A stretch of 23,775 nucleotides of DNA from a virus. Of the stretch, positions 3,228 to 12,449 are shown piece by piece. The DNA lies in the IMG/VR virus record IMGVR_UViG_3300022837_000097, positions 1-23,775 of that record. The stretch is one strand, 5' to 3'. The notes beneath the pieces were generated by a model. It saw nothing but the letters and a program-made list of their open reading frames with translations. It ran no database searches and was not told where the DNA came from. Numbering within the stretch: position 1 is the stretch's first letter; the number at the start of each line of letters is the position of its first letter. The position numbers were made by a program, and so were the translations under genes.

Positions 3228-4151
3228 ATGTCTTTTGCAAATTTAAAGAAGAACCGTTCAAGCTCACTGGAGAAACTTTCGTCACAGCTTGACAAGATGG
3301 CCTCAAAAGGCTTCGCAGATCCCCTAAAAGAAAAATACTGGGTCCCTACTCGTGACACTGCAGGTAATGGTTTTGCAATCATTCGCTTCCTTCCTGCTGG
3401 CGAGAATGACGCCGCTCCTTTCGTTCGTGTGTGGGATCACGCATTCAAGAGTACAGGTGGGTGGTACATCGAGAAGTCTTTGTCGACAATTGGACAAGAT
3501 GATCCGCTGGGCAAATTCAACGCAAAACTGTGGAATACAGGGAATGAAGCTGACAAAGAGCAGGCCCGCAAGCAGAAGCGCCGTCTAAAGTATCATTCAA
3601 ACATTCTCGTCATTAAAGATTCAGCCAACCCTGAAAACGAAGGTAAAGTCTTTCTTTACGCGTACGGTAAAAAGATCTTTGATAAGGTGAACGACATGAT
3701 GAGGCCACAATTCGAAGACGAGACACCAATCAACCCATTCGACTTCTGGGTAGGTGCTAACTTCAAATTGAAGATTCGTCAATATGAAGGCTATCCAAAC
3801 TACGATCGTTCAGAGTGGGAAGAAGCGTCCCAATTGTACGATGGCGACGAAGTCAAGCTTGAAGAGACGTACAAGCAGCTGAATTCTCTTGAAGAGTTGA
3901 TTGCACCCTCACAATTCAAAACATACGACGATCTGCAGGCACGTCTGCACAAAGTACTTGGCGTTTCAGGCGACGGCAGCGAAGGTGGCAATTCCACTGC
4001 AGAAACTATGATTGATGATGATCTTGATATGAGCAAACTCGGCAACGTCTCAGACGAACCCGAAAAGAAAAGCTCTACTTCTGATACATCCAAATCTGAC
4101 GAGACGGACGATGACGATTTGGCATTCTTCCGCAATCTCGCCGATAATTAA
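3228..4151 (+). CDS. 32: Single-stranded DNA-binding protein (gp32)
   Basis: gp32 coats ssDNA and organises replication, recombination and repair. The 307-residue protein has the expected three parts. The basic N-terminal arm (KKNRSSSLEKLSSQLDKM) drives cooperativity. The core starts at RDTAGNGFAIIRFLPAGENDAAPFVR and includes WYIE, the KYHSNILVIKDSANPENEGKVF segment and the PFDFWVGANFKLK segment. The C-terminal tail is acidic and Ser/Asp-rich and ends DDDDLAFFRNLADN. The T4 zinc site (His-Cys-Cys-Cys) is absent: the matching region, STIGQDDPLGKFNAKLW, has no cysteine. The core is probably stabilised without zinc, as I recall for cyanophage gp32. AAGGAG stands at the ribosome site, and a strong hairpin follows the stop. 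Confidence 0.95.
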   Translation: MSFANLKKNRSSSLEKLSSQLDKMASKGFADPLKEKYWVPTRDTAGNGFAIIRFLPAGENDAAPFVRVWDHAFKSTGGWYIEKSLSTIGQDDPLGKFNAKLWNTGNEADKEQARKQKRRLKYHSNILVIKDSANPENEGKVFLYAYGKKIFDKVNDMMRPQFEDETPINPFDFWVGANFKLKIRQYEGYPNYDRSEWEEASQLYDGDEVKLEETYKQLNSLEELIAPSQFKTYDDLQARLHKVLGVSGDGSEGGNSTAETMIDDDLDMSKLGNVSDEPEKKSSTSDTSKSDETDDDDLAFFRNLADN

Positions 4152-4218: not shown

Positions 4219-4497
4219 ATGACAAAAAAGACAGACTCAGATGTTGAGTTTGACTTCGGGTTTTCGTTTGTCGACGAGAATGTTGAAGTCAAACTCGAAG
4301 AACATTCACCACAAAAAGAAGAGATAGAAGAATTGCAATCGCGTGTAGATCTTCTATACGATACTATCACTCCGTTTCTCGACAACCTATGCAGAAACCC
4401 AAGCAGGTCAACTATCCTTTGGCCTAATAGAGTGGAAAAGATTACTGAATTTAAGACACGTTTGAAAATGATCACAGAAGGGAAACATAAAAAATGA
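4219..4497 (+). CDS. Small conserved protein between gp32 and UvsX
   Basis: A 92-residue protein that starts acidic (DSDVEFDFGFSFVDENVEV), continues as a charged helix (KEEIEELQSRVDLLYDTITPFLDNL) and ends with NPSRSTILWPNRVEKITEFKTRL. I recognise this layout from small proteins in the same gp32-uvsX gap of T4-like cyanophages, where a WPNR motif is also present; no function is known to me. It ends in an ATGA overlap with uvsX, so translation is probably coupled and the product may act with the recombinase. Confidence 0.75.
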   Translation: MTKKTDSDVEFDFGFSFVDENVEVKLEEHSPQKEEIEELQSRVDLLYDTITPFLDNLCRNPSRSTILWPNRVEKITEFKTRLKMITEGKHKK

Positions 4498-5402
4498 GTA
4501 CACTACTTGAAAAGATGCTAAGCACGGGGAGTACCAAATCTTCTGCTGTTCTATCCTCATCGCCCTTTTTCAATGCAAAGGAAGCGATTCCTACCGACTT
4601 GCCAATTCTCAACATTGCATTTAGTGGATCTATTGATGGCGGACTTCTGCCAGGATTGACTGTCGTTGCAGGCGTATCAAAGAGCTTCAAAACTCTATTG
4701 AGCCTCTACTGCATGAAGGCATATCTGGACAAATACCCTGAGGGAATTGCACTGCTATACGACTCTGAGTTTGGTATTACACCAGAGTACATTGAGAGCA
4801 TCGACATCGACATCGATCGCGTTGTTCACATTCCCGTTAAGGATGTTGAGGAGCTCAAGTTTGACATGGTTCAAAAGTTAGATGCGATTGGCAAAAAAGA
4901 CAAAGTGTTTATCATGATTGACTCAGTCGGTAACCTTGCATCTAAGAAAGAGCTAGAAGATGCACAAAACGAAAAGTCTGTCGCAGACATGTCGCGTGCC
5001 AAGAGCTTGAAGTCGTTGTTTCGTATCATCACACCATACCTCACAACCAAAAGCATTCCGTGTCTTGCAGTAAATCACGTATATTCAGAAATCGGCATTT
5101 TTCCAAAGGCTATTGTTAGTGGTGGATGTGTGATTGCAGGTACTAATATTCAGACCCCAACTGGTCTCAAGTCAATCGAGGATTTTAATGTTGGAGAAAG
5201 AGTTATTACGCAGTACGGAGACATGGAAGTGTCACATGTCTGGAATCCTGACACGCTTGATGATGGCAACCCTGAATGTTTTGAAATTGAATTTGAAGAT
5301 GGTTACATTGTCACGTGTTCTGACGAACATAGGTTCATTATTGATGGAGAATGGGTCGCAGCTAAAGACCTTAAACCTGGTGCTGAATGTCAAGTTGTTT
5401 AA
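4494..5402 (+). CDS. uvsX: UvsX recombinase, N-terminal part fused to N-intein
   Basis: UvsX is the T4-type RecA homologue that forms filaments on ssDNA and pairs homologous strands. This gene encodes residues 1-211 of the recombinase followed by a 91-residue N-terminal half-intein and a TAA stop. The extein part has the P-loop G60-V-S-K-S-F-K-T67, a Walker B-like FIMIDSVGNL segment, and ends at IVSGG. The cut lies just before TGIMYSA, in the region of the DNA-binding L2 loop. The intein begins with Cys212. The C-terminal part is the separate gene at 5701. Joined, the exteins give about 360 residues, close to T4 UvsX (391). Activity would need trans-splicing of the two products. Confidence 0.92.
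   Translation: MSTLLEKMLSTGSTKSSAVLSSSPFFNAKEAIPTDLPILNIAFSGSIDGGLLPGLTVVAGVSKSFKTLLSLYCMKAYLDKYPEGIALLYDSEFGITPEYIESIDIDIDRVVHIPVKDVEELKFDMVQKLDAIGKKDKVFIMIDSVGNLASKKELEDAQNEKSVADMSRAKSLKSLFRIITPYLTTKSIPCLAVNHVYSEIGIFPKAIVSGGCVIAGTNIQTPTGLKSIEDFNVGERVITQYGDMEVSHVWNPDTLDDGNPECFEIEFEDGYIVTCSDEHRFIIDGEWVAAKDLKPGAECQVV
5127..5399 (+). other. Split intein in UvsX, N-terminal half
   Basis: Residues 212-302 of the gene product. Block A begins with Cys1 (CVIAGTNIQTPTG), then SIEDFNVGERVIT. Block B is VTCSDEHRF, with the conserved His of the T-x-x-H motif. The half ends WVAAKDLKPGAECQVV and stops. No endonuclease domain is fused. These are the standard splicing blocks of a class 1 Hint-fold intein. 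Confidence 0.88.
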
Positions 5403-5421
5403 ATTAATGTTATGAGCGGAG

Positions 5422-5477
5422 TAAGAGAGTCCTTAGTCATTATGAATAATGATAACAACAAACAAAGGACTCTCTTA
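5422..5477 (+). promoter_or_regulatory. Hairpin covering the ribosome site of the endonuclease relic
   Basis: TAAGAGAGTCCTT (5422-5434) is the exact reverse complement of AAGGACTCTCTTA (5465-5477). The right arm contains the AAGGA ribosome site and the A of the ATG at 5477. A transcript running in from uvsX would fold so that this start is hidden. The 30-nt loop contains the late-box-like TATGAATA. This is the layout known for T4 intron and free-standing endonuclease genes such as I-TevI, where early RNA is untranslated and a late promoter in the loop yields RNA lacking the left arm. Confidence 0.7.
5441..5448 (+). promoter_or_regulatory. Late-promoter-like box inside the hairpin loop
   Basis: TATGAATA differs by one base from TATAAATA. 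A start about 6-8 nt downstream would fall inside the loop and give an RNA that has the AAGGA site but lacks the left hairpin arm. Confidence 0.4.
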
Positions 5478-5669
5478 TGAACATTATTTACAAGATCACA
5501 TTTCAACATCGTCTGGCTCAGAACATTCAGCCTTATTATTACATAGGATCAAAAACTAGTTGTACTGTAGTCGAAGGTGTTATATTGAACTCTAAAGGTA
5601 AACATGAACAGATGGCACGGTGAAAAATGCAAAAGTAAGAGTTTATATCCAGATGATAGTTTGGTATAG
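5477..5669 (+). pseudogene. Remnant of a GIY-YIG homing endonuclease
   Basis: An ATG at 5477 with AAGGA seven nt upstream opens a 48-codon frame. Its product begins MNIIYKITFQHRL and continues PYYYIGSK, the IYK ... YYIG pair at the start of a GIY-YIG nuclease domain. The frame then reaches TGA at 5621. From 5604 a different frame reads RWHGEKCKSKSLYP, which looks like the C-terminal DNA-contact motif (RWHGxxCK) of phage homing endonucleases, and stops at 5669. The whole middle, including the catalytic Arg and Glu, is missing. The best reading is an internal deletion with a frame change in a gene that sat between the two halves of the uvsX intein. Activity is very unlikely. Confidence 0.7.
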
Positions 5670-5700
5670 TTGACAAATTTAACACATTAAAGGAAACAAT

Positions 5701-5817
5701 ATGAAAATACGCTCTATTAGATCAGTAGGTAAGTTGCCTGTATATGATCTATCAGTAAACAGTGACAATTATGATGAGCAGCAATATGTGCTGGAAAATG
5801 GTGTAGTTACTCACAAT
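5701..5817 (+). other. Split intein in UvsX, C-terminal half
   Basis: Residues 1-39. Block F is VGKLPVYDLSVNSDNY and block G ends ENGVVTHN, with His38-Asn39 before Thr40 of the extein. The length is typical of natural C-inteins. All residues needed for splicing in trans with the half at 5127 are visible. Confidence 0.88.
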
Positions 5818-6267
5818 ACGGGAATCATGTATTCAGCAAATACTGTATTCATCATCAGCAAGGCACAAGAGAAAGACGGAACCGAGCTTGCAGGATGGAA
5901 GTTCACAATCAACATTGAGAAGTCACGTTACGTCAAAGAGAAATCTAAACTACCATTCACTGTAATGTATGAGGATGGTATACAAAAGTGGACTGCAATC
6001 TTCGACATTGCGATGGAATCTGGCTTCATCACGAAACCGAAGGTTGGTTGGTACAATCTTGTTGATCCTGAAACAGGCGAAGTAGACGAGAAGAACTATC
6101 GTCAGGCAGATGTGGTTACTAACAATGCTTTTTTTGAAAAACTTGTTAAAAACGTGGATTTCAAAGAGTTTGTAGAGCGCAAGTTCAAACTGTCTGCAAC
6201 TCAAAAGAAGTCGGACGACAACCACAGAGAAGATGATGTGGAAATGGATATGGACACAGACGAGTAA
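5701..6267 (+). CDS. uvsX: UvsX recombinase, C-intein fused to C-terminal part
   Basis: This second gene of the broken recombinase has its own start, with AAAGGAA seven nt before the ATG. Residues 1-39 are the C-terminal half-intein. Residues 40-188 are the recombinase C-terminal part, starting Thr40-GIMYSANTVFIISKAQEKDG and including KFTINIEKSRYVKEKSKLPF, which aligns with T4 UvsX downstream of its own GG-TGVMYSA. The acidic tail (DDVEMDMDTDE) also matches the T4 protein. The C-extein +1 residue is Thr, a permitted nucleophile. The gene lies 298 nt after the stop of the N-terminal gene, with an endonuclease relic between, and a strong hairpin follows it. Confidence 0.9.
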   Translation: MKIRSIRSVGKLPVYDLSVNSDNYDEQQYVLENGVVTHNTGIMYSANTVFIISKAQEKDGTELAGWKFTINIEKSRYVKEKSKLPFTVMYEDGIQKWTAIFDIAMESGFITKPKVGWYNLVDPETGEVDEKNYRQADVVTNNAFFEKLVKNVDFKEFVERKFKLSATQKKSDDNHREDDVEMDMDTDE

Positions 6268-6339: not shown

Positions 6340-7725
6340 ATGATAGAGCAAACTATTCTTGCTAATCTACTTTACAATGGGGAGTTTTGTCGCAAAGTCA
6401 TTCCATACATCAAAGAAGAGTATTTCGATGATGTTGCAACCAAAAAGATATTTGCATCTTTCTCTGAATATGTCAGCACATATAAAGAACCACCTTCAAT
6501 TGAGGCTCTCAAGATTACGCTGGAAGCACGTAAAGATCTCAACGAGGATTTGTTTAAGGCTATCAACACATCCATCGACGAGTTGAAGGTCGACGTAGCA
6601 ACTAATCAAGATTGGCTTTTAGGGGAGACAGAGAAGTTCTGTCAAGACAAGGATCTGTTCAATTCAATCAGAAAAGCAATTTTGATTCTCGATGGGCAAG
6701 ATAAAGAGTTCGACAAAGGTGCTATTCCTAAGCTGTTGTCCGATTCGCTTGGGATTAACTTTGATAGTCACATTGGACATGATTATCTAGAAGATGCAGA
6801 TAGTCGTTATGATTTCTATCATCGTACAGAAGAGCGAATTCCTTTTGACATTGACATATTGAACCAAATCACTAAGGGTGGACTGCCACGTAAATCTTTG
6901 ACGTTGATTTTAGCAACTACAGGTGGTGGGAAAAGTTTGATGAAATGTCACATGGCTGCAGCGTCTCTCATGCATGCCAAGAACGTCCTCTACATAACAG
7001 CTGAAATGGCTGAGGAGAGAATTGCAGAACGTATTGATGCTAATCTACTAGATGTGACGATTGATCAGCTACGAGAAATGCCCAGAGAGATGTTCAATAC
7101 GAGAATTGCCAAGGTTAAAGGTAGAACACCTGGAAAACTTGTAGTCAAAGAATATCCTACAGGATCTGCTCATGCAGGACACTTTAGACACCTCCTCAAT
7201 GAGCTGAAACTAAAGAAGGGGTTTGCCCCTGATATTATCTTCATTGATTATCTCAACATATGTGCATCTTCTCGTGTGAAGGGTGCAGCAGCCGCAAACT
7301 CGTATACACTGGTTAAGTCAATCGCTGAAGAAATACGTGGTTTGGCAATGGAGTTTGATTGTCCTATTGTATCATCAAGTCAGTACAATCGTGGAGCATA
7401 CGATTCAAGTGATGTAGACCTTACAAATACATCTGAGTGCATTTACGCTAAAGAAACAGTTACGATGAGTGACGGAACGTCGAGGTGCATATCTGACCTA
7501 AAACCAGGCGATAAAATTAAAAGCGAAGATAGTACCAAGCTAGTCACGATGGTCCACCATCCCAAGATGAAAGACTGTGTGAAGATTAAAATGAACAGCG
7601 GCAAGACAATTATTGTCAGTAAGGATCATGTGTTTCCATCTAGATCTAACAACGGCATCGTGTCACGACTATCTGTTAATCAGGGACTAAATGTGGGCAA
7701 CAGTCTGAATGTAGTAGAGGATTAA
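6340..7725 (+). CDS. 41: Replicative helicase gp41, N-terminal part fused to N-intein
   Basis: gp41 is the DnaB-type hexameric 5'-3' helicase of the T4 replisome. This gene encodes helicase residues 1-366 and a 95-residue N-intein, then TAA. The N-terminal helical domain starts MIEQTILANLLYNGEF. The RecA-like domain has the Walker A A192-T-T-G-G-G-K-S199, Walker B IIFIDYLNI at 299-307 and SSSQYNRGAY. The intein interrupts a DnaB motif-4 segment after DLTNTSE, and the extein resumes with SMGIAHTAD in the next gene. Joined, the exteins give 477 residues, against 475 in T4. The stop codon is followed at once by TAC-ATG in the same frame. Confidence 0.93.
   Translation: MIEQTILANLLYNGEFCRKVIPYIKEEYFDDVATKKIFASFSEYVSTYKEPPSIEALKITLEARKDLNEDLFKAINTSIDELKVDVATNQDWLLGETEKFCQDKDLFNSIRKAILILDGQDKEFDKGAIPKLLSDSLGINFDSHIGHDYLEDADSRYDFYHRTEERIPFDIDILNQITKGGLPRKSLTLILATTGGGKSLMKCHMAAASLMHAKNVLYITAEMAEERIAERIDANLLDVTIDQLREMPREMFNTRIAKVKGRTPGKLVVKEYPTGSAHAGHFRHLLNELKLKKGFAPDIIFIDYLNICASSRVKGAAAANSYTLVKSIAEEIRGLAMEFDCPIVSSSQYNRGAYDSSDVDLTNTSECIYAKETVTMSDGTSRCISDLKPGDKIKSEDSTKLVTMVHHPKMKDCVKIKMNSGKTIIVSKDHVFPSRSNNGIVSRLSVNQGLNVGNSLNVVED
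7438..7722 (+). other. Split intein in gp41, N-terminal half
   Basis: Residues 367-461. Block A begins with Cys1 (CIYAKETVTMSDGTSR), then ISDLKPGDKI. Block B is IIVSKDHVFP, with its His conserved. The C-terminal part (SRLSVNQGLNVGNSL) resembles the end of the natural gp41-type split N-inteins known from marine metagenomes. It has many Lys residues, whereas the facing N-terminal extension of the C-half is acidic, which could aid association. Confidence 0.88.
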
Positions 7726-7728
7726 TAC

Positions 7729-8007
7729 ATGAACGATAGTCAAATGGAAAAGATGCAGAATGACTGTTTTGTCAAAGCTCACCACATGATCGTCAACAAC
7801 ATGACCAAAGAGATGGATGTGTTCGACCTGACAGATCTGCTGATAAGCATGGAGATCGAGAAAGAGGAGAAGCAACAAGTTGAAGACAGCAAGATTGATT
7901 ACAACGACACTATTGTAGAAATTGAGAACGTCGGCATGATGGAAACAGTAGATATATCTGTAACAGGTAGTCAATTGTTCTACTGCAATGGCATTTTGAC
8001 AAAAAAC
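7729..8007 (+). other. Split intein in gp41, extended C-terminal half
   Basis: The last 40 or so residues (IVEIENVGMMETVDISV, then LFYCNGILTKN) form blocks F and G of a C-intein, ending Lys92-Asn93 before Ser94. About 53 further residues precede them, rich in Asp, Glu and Met, with no match to an endonuclease motif that I can see. Known natural C-inteins of this kind are nearer 35-45 residues. The extension may be linker left by a lost insert, or an added association segment. In-frame Met codons within it are alternative starts. Confidence 0.85.
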
Positions 8008-8343
8008 AGTATGGGGATTGCTCACACTGCTGATTGTATCCTCGGATTGATCTCATCAGAAGAATTAGAGGCGATGGGCCAGATAATGATCAAGCAGTTA
8101 AAAAACAGATGGGGCGACCTCGGATTCTACAGACGGTTTGTTGTTGGAATAGACAGATCAAAAATGAAGCTGTATGATTTGGAAGAGGGTGCACAGAGCG
8201 ATGTTCAAAATGAGACAAGGAAAAAACAACAACCACAAGAGGACGAAGATAAGCCCACATTCGACACCTCTAATTTCGGACAAGAGGAATCATTTAGAAT
8301 GAAACCTTCTTGGAAGAAAACTAAGGTAGACGGATTCAAATGA
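7729..8343 (+). CDS. 41: Replicative helicase gp41, C-intein fused to C-terminal part
   Basis: A gene of 204 codons starting three nt after the stop of the N-terminal gene and in the same frame. AGAGGA (7716-7721), inside the end of the first gene, gives a ribosome site seven nt before the ATG. Residues 1-93 are an extended C-intein. Residues 94-204 are the helicase C-terminus, starting Ser94-MGIAHTADCILGLISSEE and including KQLKNRWGD and RRFVVGIDRSKMKLYD. The tail is hydrophilic. The split is thus one stop codon plus a reinitiation start, so read-through would give a continuous intein of about 190 residues. The Asn-1 residue is preceded by Lys rather than the usual His. Confidence 0.9.
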   Translation: MNDSQMEKMQNDCFVKAHHMIVNNMTKEMDVFDLTDLLISMEIEKEEKQQVEDSKIDYNDTIVEIENVGMMETVDISVTGSQLFYCNGILTKNSMGIAHTADCILGLISSEELEAMGQIMIKQLKNRWGDLGFYRRFVVGIDRSKMKLYDLEEGAQSDVQNETRKKQQPQEDEDKPTFDTSNFGQEESFRMKPSWKKTKVDGFK

Positions 8344-11197: not shown

Positions 11198-11237
11198 TCA
11201 TGTCCGAATGGCCCGCTGTATTCTTGGAGATGTGAAC

Positions 11238-12449
11238 ATGAAATACGAATCTGCACTTGACATTGCCTTGAACCTTCTACATTCAGAAGGACGTTACAGG
11301 ACGTTTATAGATATTGAGCGTAAAAAGGGTGCCTATCCTACCGCTACGTGGTACAATCCAGATGGAGAACGTCGAGACGTTGTTGTGTGGTGTGGCAACG
11401 ATTATCTCGGCATGGGTCAACATCCTGTGGTTTTAGAGGCAATGGCTATTGCACTCGAGGCAACGGGTGCAGGTTCAGGCGGCACGAGAAACATATCAGG
11501 AACCACAGTATACCACAGCAGACTTGAAGCAGAACTGTCTGATTTGCATCAGACAGAGGCTGCTCTTGTATTCACCTCAGCATATAATGCCAACGATGCC
11601 ACGTTGTCAACATTGCCCAAGCTCTTTCCAGGCCTCATCATATATTCTGATGCGTTGAACCACGCTTCGATGATTGAGGGTGTGAGACGTAATGGTGGCG
11701 CAAAGCGTATCTTTAGGCACAATGATGTTGACCATCTACGTGATCTACTCGCTGCTGACGACCCATCTGCTCCAAAGTTAATTGCGTTCGAGTCTATATA
11801 CTCGATGGACGGTGATTTTGCACCGATAAAAAGCATATGCGACCTTGCGGACGAGTTTAACGCTCTTACATACATTGACGAGGTACATGCTGTCGGCATG
11901 TACGGGCCACGTGGAGCAGGTGTGTGCGAACGTGACGGTTTAATGGACAGAATTGATATTGTTAACGGTACGCTGGCCAAAGCCTACGGTGTGGCAGGTG
12001 GCTACATCGCTGGATCAGCCAAGATGTGTGATGCAATACGATCTTATGCGCCAGGATTCATATTTACATCCTCTATGCCTCCTGCCGTTGCTGCAGGGGC
12101 AGCAGCATCTGTACATTATTTGAAAAATGCACAACATTTGCGCGACACGCACTTACTTCGTGTCAACATGTTGAAAGGACGCTTTAAAAGTATTGGACTA
12201 CCTTTGATTGATAATGGCAGTCACATTGTTCCTGTACATGTAGGTAACCCCATCCATTGTAAGGTGTTGTCTGACATGTTACTAGAACAACACGGGATTT
12301 ATGTGCAGCCTATCAACTTTCCTACAGTCCCACGTGGAACTGAGAGACTTCGGTTCACACCTTCTCCTGTTCACAGTATTAGCCAAATAGACTATCTGGT
12401 TCAGATAATGGATGAACTCTGGCATAGGTGCGCACTCGACCGCTCTTAG
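11238..12449 (+). CDS. hemA: 5-aminolevulinate synthase (ALAS)
   Basis: A PLP enzyme that joins glycine and succinyl-CoA to give 5-aminolevulinate, CoA and CO2, the first step of heme and bacteriochlorophyll synthesis by the Shemin route of alphaproteobacteria. From ATG 11238 (TTGGAG nine nt upstream; an earlier ATG at 11208 has no ribosome site) the protein has 403 residues, full length. Residues fall at the same numbers as in the Rhodobacter enzyme: R21, N54, T83, N85, H142, D214, H217 and PLP-lysine K248. The loop around the lysine reads GTLAKAYG instead of the near-invariant GTLGKAFG. No Cys-Pro heme regulatory motif is present. The sequence is very like Rhodobacterales HemA, so recent transfer from a host is likely. 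Its stop overlaps the stop of a convergent gene. Confidence 0.96.

What the first reader, a model, noticed from the sequence alone, without database searches (positions are those of the whole stretch)
4494..6267. UvsX recombinase split into two genes by a trans-splicing intein
Cys212 starts block A of an N-half-intein that stops at TAA (5400). A second gene with its own AAAGGAA site encodes a 39-residue C-half ending His-Asn, then Thr and the rest of UvsX. The cut is in the DNA-binding L2 loop region, so unspliced halves should be inactive. Split-intein fractured genes are known for gp41 and other enzymes in marine metagenomes. UvsX inteins exist, but I do not recall a split one at this site.
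Basis: partly seen in the sequence, partly recalled or inferred. Interest (0 to 1): 0.85.

Follow-up and report, generated by a model that had tools for sequence, protein, structure and literature searches.

The report
UvsX recombinase split by trans-splicing intein
A phage DNA-repair recombinase is encoded as two separate proteins that most likely stitch themselves together through a split intein; the arrangement is real and conserved, but it is a further case of a known kind that already sits, mostly unremarked, in sequenced phages.

Summary
UvsX is encoded by two genes: residues 1-211 plus a 91-aa N-half intein (4494-5402), and a 39-aa C-half intein plus 149 residues (5701-6267). Taking the intein out leaves a seamless UvsX. 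The intein family gives a confident HINT-fold model close to the gp41-1 split intein. A near-twin contig has the same stop, and both intein halves are under purifying selection, so a sequencing error is unlikely.

The gap holds both ends of a GIY-YIG-type homing endonuclease gene whose middle is deleted (intact in the twin), behind a hairpin. The neighbouring gp41 helicase gene is split too. And the site is not new to databases: 19 sequenced phages carry this intein in uvsX, and 37 of 40 distinct loci counted are split.

Those gaps hold several kinds of endonuclease or decayed remains, and near-identical inteins carry different ones: the break looks stable while endonucleases come and go. It is a new member of a known kind (fractured genes, Dassa et al. 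2009: recalled, not readable here). Trans-splicing itself was not shown. The most surprising by-product is a related contig with uvsX in three genes and two split inteins.

The parts
4494..5402 (+). uvsX N gene: N-extein 4494-5126 (residues 1-211), N-half intein 5127-5399 (91 aa from Cys212), stop 5400-5402
   Evidence: PF00154 RecA 36.8 bits and PHROG 97/8337; twin
5421..5478 (+). hairpin in front of the old endonuclease gene; its 3' arm covers AAGGA and the first two bases of the ATG; TATGAATA (one mismatch from TATAAATA) at 5441-5448
   Evidence: fold -22.9 kcal/mol, z -5.77, 0 of 200 shuffles as low
5477..5602 (+). 5' remnant of a GIY-YIG-type homing endonuclease gene (42 codons; open frame runs on to 5623)
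   Evidence: PHROG 7504 homing endonuclease 7e-14; 97.6% to residues 1-42 of the twin's 289-aa protein
5595..5666 (+). 3' remnant of the same gene, in another frame; about 677 bp between the two are missing compared with the twin
   Evidence: 87.5% to residues 266-289 of the twin's protein; alignment with the twin
5689..5695 (+). AAAGGAA, likely ribosome-binding site of the C gene, kept in the twin
5701..6267 (+). uvsX C gene: C-half intein 5701-5817 (39 aa, ends His-Asn), C-extein 5818-6264 (149 aa from Thr), stop 6265-6267
   Evidence: T4_UVSX_C 39.2 bits and PHROG 18112
6340..7725 (+). gp41 helicase N gene: N-extein 6340-7437 (366 aa), N-half intein 7438-7722 (95 aa), stop 7723-7725
   Evidence: DnaB_C 63.3 bits, PHROG 19
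7729..8343 (+). gp41 helicase C gene: 93 aa ending in a C-half intein (LTKN at 8007), then C-extein from Ser 8008; starts three bases after the stop, in the same frame
   Evidence: PHROG 19; same layout in the twin over 2004 bp without a gap

Best explanation
The locus is a fractured uvsX gene. The phage makes UvsX as two proteins, each carrying half of an intein. The halves meet and fold into one HINT domain, which cuts itself out (Cys1 acyl shift, transfer to Thr+1, Asn cyclisation) and joins residues 1-211 to the other 149, giving a normal 360-aa UvsX. In this lineage a free-standing GIY-YIG-type homing endonuclease gene, with its own hairpin and late-promoter-like control, sat in the break and would have copied the insert into intein-free uvsX genes of co-infecting phages. 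In this genome the endonuclease gene has lost its middle, so the element is probably no longer mobile by itself, yet the split intein is kept because UvsX cannot be made without it. Shown here: gene structure, junctions, empty site in relatives, HINT fold of the family, conservation and purifying selection, endonuclease remains, hairpin. Inferred: trans-splicing, UvsX activity, homing, late control, and that the intein was once contiguous.
For: Exact junctions and a seamless spliced UvsX. Cys1 and S-x-x-H invariant in 26 aligned N-half regions. Sequence matches to solved inteins, among them Npu DnaE 2keq 1.8e-7 and gp41-1 6qaz 2.4e-7. Model of the contiguous relative L045 at pLDDT 94.2, gp41-1 6riz at TM 0.85/0.88. 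Same stop and purifying selection between window and twin: dN/dS 0.064 for the N-half intein; one synonymous and no non-synonymous change in the C-half. Endonuclease remains in the gap, intact gene in the twin. 37 of 40 loci at this site split, 3 contiguous.
Against: No spliced product, transcript or UvsX activity can be seen with these tools. The window's own N-half hits Pfam intein models only below their cut-offs. The deletion in the endonuclease gene rests on one assembled contig. The number of purifying-selection sites in the 39-codon C-half is small.
Confidence: 0.92

Rival explanations
1. Two-subunit UvsX: the halves work together without being joined, as reported for the split NrdA of phage Aeh1 and the split gp43 of phage 25; the intein halves are idle.
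For: Such unspliced split enzymes are reported in T4-like phages (PMC2988022, passages).
Against: Both intein halves keep the splicing residues and are under purifying selection; all 40 counted loci keep GG|C at the first junction and HN|T or HN|S at the second. The cut lies at the L2 region.
Confidence: 0.04
2. Pseudogene or artefact: the stop at 5400 is an error or uvsX is dead.
For: The window is a single metagenome contig; the endonuclease gene beside it is indeed broken.
Against: The twin has the same stop and start; dN/dS is 0.038 for the N-extein and 0.064 for the N-half intein; the same split is seen in cultured phages.
Confidence: 0.02
3. Controlled assembly: beyond being a tolerated parasite, the split is used to time UvsX, the C gene being boosted late from the promoter-like site left in the hairpin. 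This adds to the best explanation rather than excluding it.
For: Hairpin and promoter-like site remain although the endonuclease gene is broken. Exact TATAAATA lies within 90 nt upstream of 14 of 32 endonuclease genes, against 18 of 245 other reading frames.
Against: The window's site has one mismatch; the C gene has its own ribosome-binding site; remains of a recently lost endonuclease gene explain the same facts.
Confidence: 0.1

Closest known systems
Fractured genes with split inteins and a free-standing endonuclease (Dassa et al. 2009, NAR gkp095; recalled, paper not held)
   Same: A DNA-metabolism enzyme broken in two by a split intein, with an endonuclease gene between the halves in the twin and in most relatives.
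   Different: In the window the endonuclease gene is reduced to its two ends. Whether that paper already lists UvsX could not be checked.
uvsX split intein of cultured T4-like phages (e.g. Shewanella phage Thanatos-1, Yersinia TG1, Proteus Pm5461, Klebsiella Lion_ER11)
   Same: Same gene, same junction, same split point, N gene - endonuclease - C gene - gp41 region.
   Different: 50-57% identity in the N-half intein (these four); intact endonuclease genes; gp41 not split in the eight opened.
gp41-1 split intein (6qaz, 6riz)
   Same: HINT fold, TM 0.82-0.85 by query length; a T4-like replication gene as host.
   Different: Another host gene; 23-25% identity to the modelled relative L045.
T4 SegA
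   Same: GIY-YIG endonuclease beside uvsX that cuts uvsX (PMC2988022 passages). Thanatos-1 has a relative of it (50% over 179 aa) inside its uvsX split intein.
   Different: SegA stands outside uvsX; the twin's endonuclease has no SegA match at E 0.01.

Membership tests
Naturally split intein | Cys1 (or Ser) at the N-junction and block B T/S-x-x-H | tested here: met
   Cys1, S65 and H68 invariant in 26 aligned regions, window included
Naturally split intein | C-half ends His-Asn, followed by Cys, Ser or Thr | tested here: met
   THN|T in the window; HN|T or HN|S in all 40 counted loci
Naturally split intein | Halves on two genes, split at the usual endonuclease point (C-half about 35-40 aa) | tested here: met
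   91 and 39 aa in the window; usual sizes as given in PMC12707363 (passages) with N-halves of 100-120 aa, slightly longer than here
Naturally split intein | HINT fold | tested here: met
   on the contiguous relative L045, with window rows in the alignment; not on the window's halves themselves
Naturally split intein | Joins its flanks in trans | not testable with these tools
   needs co-expression
Fractured gene with free-standing endonuclease | Intact endonuclease gene between the halves | tested here: not met
   only the two ends remain in the window; intact in the twin. The window is filed as a split intein in a fractured gene that has lost its endonuclease
UvsX recombinase | RecA/UvsX core, UvsX C-terminal domain, place next to gp41 | tested here: met
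   PF00154, PF21134 above cut-off; PHROG 97; gp41 follows; the T4 map has gene 40 between uvsX and 41
UvsX recombinase | Recombinase activity | not testable with these tools
   needs purified protein

The most novel reading that the evidence does not exclude
The same uvsX site has gone further in a relative: on contig L088 (IMGVR_UViG_3300025502_000435) UvsX is spread over three genes and needs two different split inteins to be joined in trans. The middle protein (141 aa) is a C-half intein, an 11-residue extein (SMFPTAVISGG) and an N-half intein, and each of the two gaps holds an endonuclease-like gene. This would be a natural three-part trans-spliced protein with a peptide-sized middle piece, built by repeated invasion of one gene.
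Probability: 0.6. Interest if true: 0.72.

Novelty: new member of a known kind. Interest (0 to 1): 0.45.

Why it matters
The finding is a further case of a known arrangement, but an informative one. At one junction of one gene the relatives show the empty site, a contiguous intein, the split intein with several kinds of endonuclease, and the split intein with decayed ones, so how genes become and stay broken can be followed in steps. The window shows the stage after the endonuclease is lost: the phage is left with a split recombinase gene. The family also offers many natural split-intein pairs for protein engineering, and a possible natural three-part case (L088).

Tried and rejected
Group I intron in uvsX: Rfam at gathering thresholds found nothing in the window and nine related loci; the extra inserts in L088, L090 and L092 proved to be a second split-intein site. 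A single-sequence model of the whole L045 precursor was useless (pLDDT 43). A link between interrupted uvsX and interrupted gp41 was counted (both 5, uvsX only 26, gp41 only 5, neither 96), but loci were fetched with queries from both genes and the window and its twin count separately, so I draw nothing from it. The intein tree is weak (7 of 36 inner branches starred); its labels are a little more clustered than shuffled ones (19 changes; shuffled mean 23.2, as low in 2 of 200), mainly GIY; the HNH label is no more clustered than chance. The turnover claim therefore rests on pairs of near-identical inteins.

Papers: Dassa 2009 (tried by DOI and PMC id) and three related papers are not held. 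Searches for a UvsX split intein in print. In the listings, abstract starts and passages I saw, none describes it; led to the Thanatos paper, where the terms intein, UvsX and homing do not occur. Supplements were not readable.

Full report
What is there. The first codes for UvsX residues 1-211 and, from Cys212, a 91-aa N-half intein. The second has its own AAAGGAA site and codes for a 39-aa C-half intein ending His-Asn and then 149 residues of UvsX from Thr. Family models name both as RecA/UvsX. The two exteins join to 360 aa that align without a gap at the junction with the intein-free relative L023. The junction falls after residue 211 of T4 UvsX and aligns with RecA TTTGG|NALKF, at the end of the L2 region (limits of L2 recalled).

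Is it an intein. In 26 aligned N-half regions Cys1 and S-x-x-H are invariant. The window's own N-half hits Pfam intein models only below their cut-offs, so a contiguous relative was used. The 131-aa intein of L045 matches solved inteins by sequence: best 4kl6 at 6.2e-9, Npu DnaE 2keq at 1.8e-7, gp41-1 6qaz at 2.4e-7. A model from a 35-row alignment has mean pLDDT 94.2; the listed best fold matches are inteins and intein-like domains, gp41-1 6riz among them at TM 0.85 and 0.88.

Is the stop real. The contig of L006 (208 kb; 90-92% DNA identity) has the same stop, start and ribosome-binding site. Between the two, dN/dS is 0.038 for the N-extein and 0.064 for the N-half intein; the 39 codons of the C-half show one synonymous and no non-synonymous change. 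The C-extein was not measured.

What lies in the gap. The twin has an intact 289-aa homing endonuclease gene there (Pfam gives only NUMOD3 for it, the GIY-YIG label is by eye and by PHROG 7504/314). The window keeps its first 42 and last 24 residues in different frames; its gap is 298 nt against 975 in the twin. Before the remnant stands a hairpin covering AAGGA and the first two bases of the ATG (z -5.77), with TATGAATA, one mismatch from TATAAATA (T4 late promoter, recalled), in its inner part. Exact TATAAATA lies within 90 nt upstream of 14 of 32 endonuclease genes (31 at this site and L092); dinucleotide shuffles give 0.83 on average and at most 4 in 300 rounds; 18 of 245 other reading frames of 100 aa or more in the same loci have it. 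The window itself is not among the 14. A hairpin stem of 9 bp or more occurs upstream of 13 of the 33 genes listed, the window included. This resembles the hairpin plus late promoter of some T4 endonuclease genes (recalled).

How common is it. Of 50,697 phage records 59 match the N-half intein at E 0.001; 25 of these match at 49-57% identity within uvsX, from 19 phages when six duplicate accessions are paired. Eight of them were opened and all eight have N gene, endonuclease gene and C gene in that order; the annotator of Vibrio phage VmeM-32 noted a HintC domain. The metagenome searches lean towards the window: 80 of 144 relatives kept, 67 loci, 80 of 561, 16. One search lists 41 distinct intein loci; L092, a different site, was dropped, and loci cut by contig ends were not counted. 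Of the 40 left, 37 are split and 3 contiguous. By eye, with Pfam and PHROG hits for some of them, the 37 gaps hold 14 GIY-YIG genes, 1 SegA-type, 9 HNH, 5 of a type reading LKYLC[VI]T (one tested: PHROG 314, homing endonuclease), 2 large genes that I call Vsr-like from memory (PHROG 3339, homing endonuclease), and 6 with no open frame of 100 aa, the window among them. In one search the SegA-type row was still labelled other.

What this says about its history. On the intein tree the gap contents need 19 changes against a minimum of 6, but the tree is weak. Clearer are pairs: L019 and L020 have identical inteins, one with a decayed gap and one with an HNH gene; L141 and L144 are close neighbours with different endonucleases; L014, L247 and L245 form a group with two kinds; the window and L006 differ by the deletion. 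So the break seems stable while endonucleases come and go. The endonuclease inside the Thanatos-1 uvsX intein is a SegA relative (50% over 179 aa); T4 SegA stands next to uvsX and cuts it (PMC2988022, passages). That fits an endonuclease already aimed at uvsX settling in the intein (inference).

The neighbour. gp41, downstream, is also split: stop 7723-7725, three bases, a new ATG in the same frame. The twin has the same layout over 2004 bp without a gap. dN/dS is 0.068 for the N-half intein and 0.015 for the first 58 codons of the C gene, where dS is near saturation, so the second figure is rough. That 58-codon stretch is an extension in front of the C-half intein; similar extensions are seen in relatives whose halves lie 42 to 1134 bp apart. 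L157 and L155 have identical N-halves with gaps of 102 and 1134 bp.

Three pieces. In L088 uvsX has a second split site 11 residues upstream. Its middle gene (3553-3978) codes for 141 aa: C-half intein b (36 aa), SMFPTAVISGG, N-half intein a (94 aa). L090 has site b split and site a contiguous; L092 has only site b. The three-gene form rests on one contig: a search with the middle protein returned no other full copy among 16 loci.

Verdict. The additions are the decayed endonuclease, the doubly split neighbourhood, the turnover of endonucleases at one split, and the three-gene relative. Trans-splicing remains to be shown.

Noticed in passing
6340-8343: gp41 helicase next to uvsX is also split by an intein, with only a stop and three bases between the halves; the twin has the same.
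   Followed up: partly
7729-7902: The gp41 C gene starts with a stretch of about 58 codons in front of the C-half intein, similar in distant relatives (L089, L141, L154, L155). Function unknown; it may help the halves meet.
   Followed up: no
L088:1593-5561: uvsX in three genes with two split inteins and an 11-residue middle extein; L090 combines one split and one contiguous intein.
   Followed up: partly
L002:5911-6564: Shewanella phage Thanatos-1 carries a SegA relative inside its uvsX split intein (50% over 179 aa).
   Followed up: partly
L089:1559-3908: gp41 of this contig seems to have a further interruption near residue 192 besides its split intein.
   Followed up: no
L233:569-3549: The record of Shigella phage ESh36 (marked UNVERIFIED) has gp41 in two pieces with a reading frame between, and intein-like half sequences at the gp41 site.
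   Followed up: partly
578-1808 and 11208-12449: Heme oxygenase, a likely bilin reductase (by eye; only PHROG 3577 of unknown function) and a 5-aminolevulinate synthase (646 bits; 93% in the twin). Phage cassettes of these three genes are published (PMC11480375, passages); here the synthase lies about 9 kb from the other two.
   Followed up: partly
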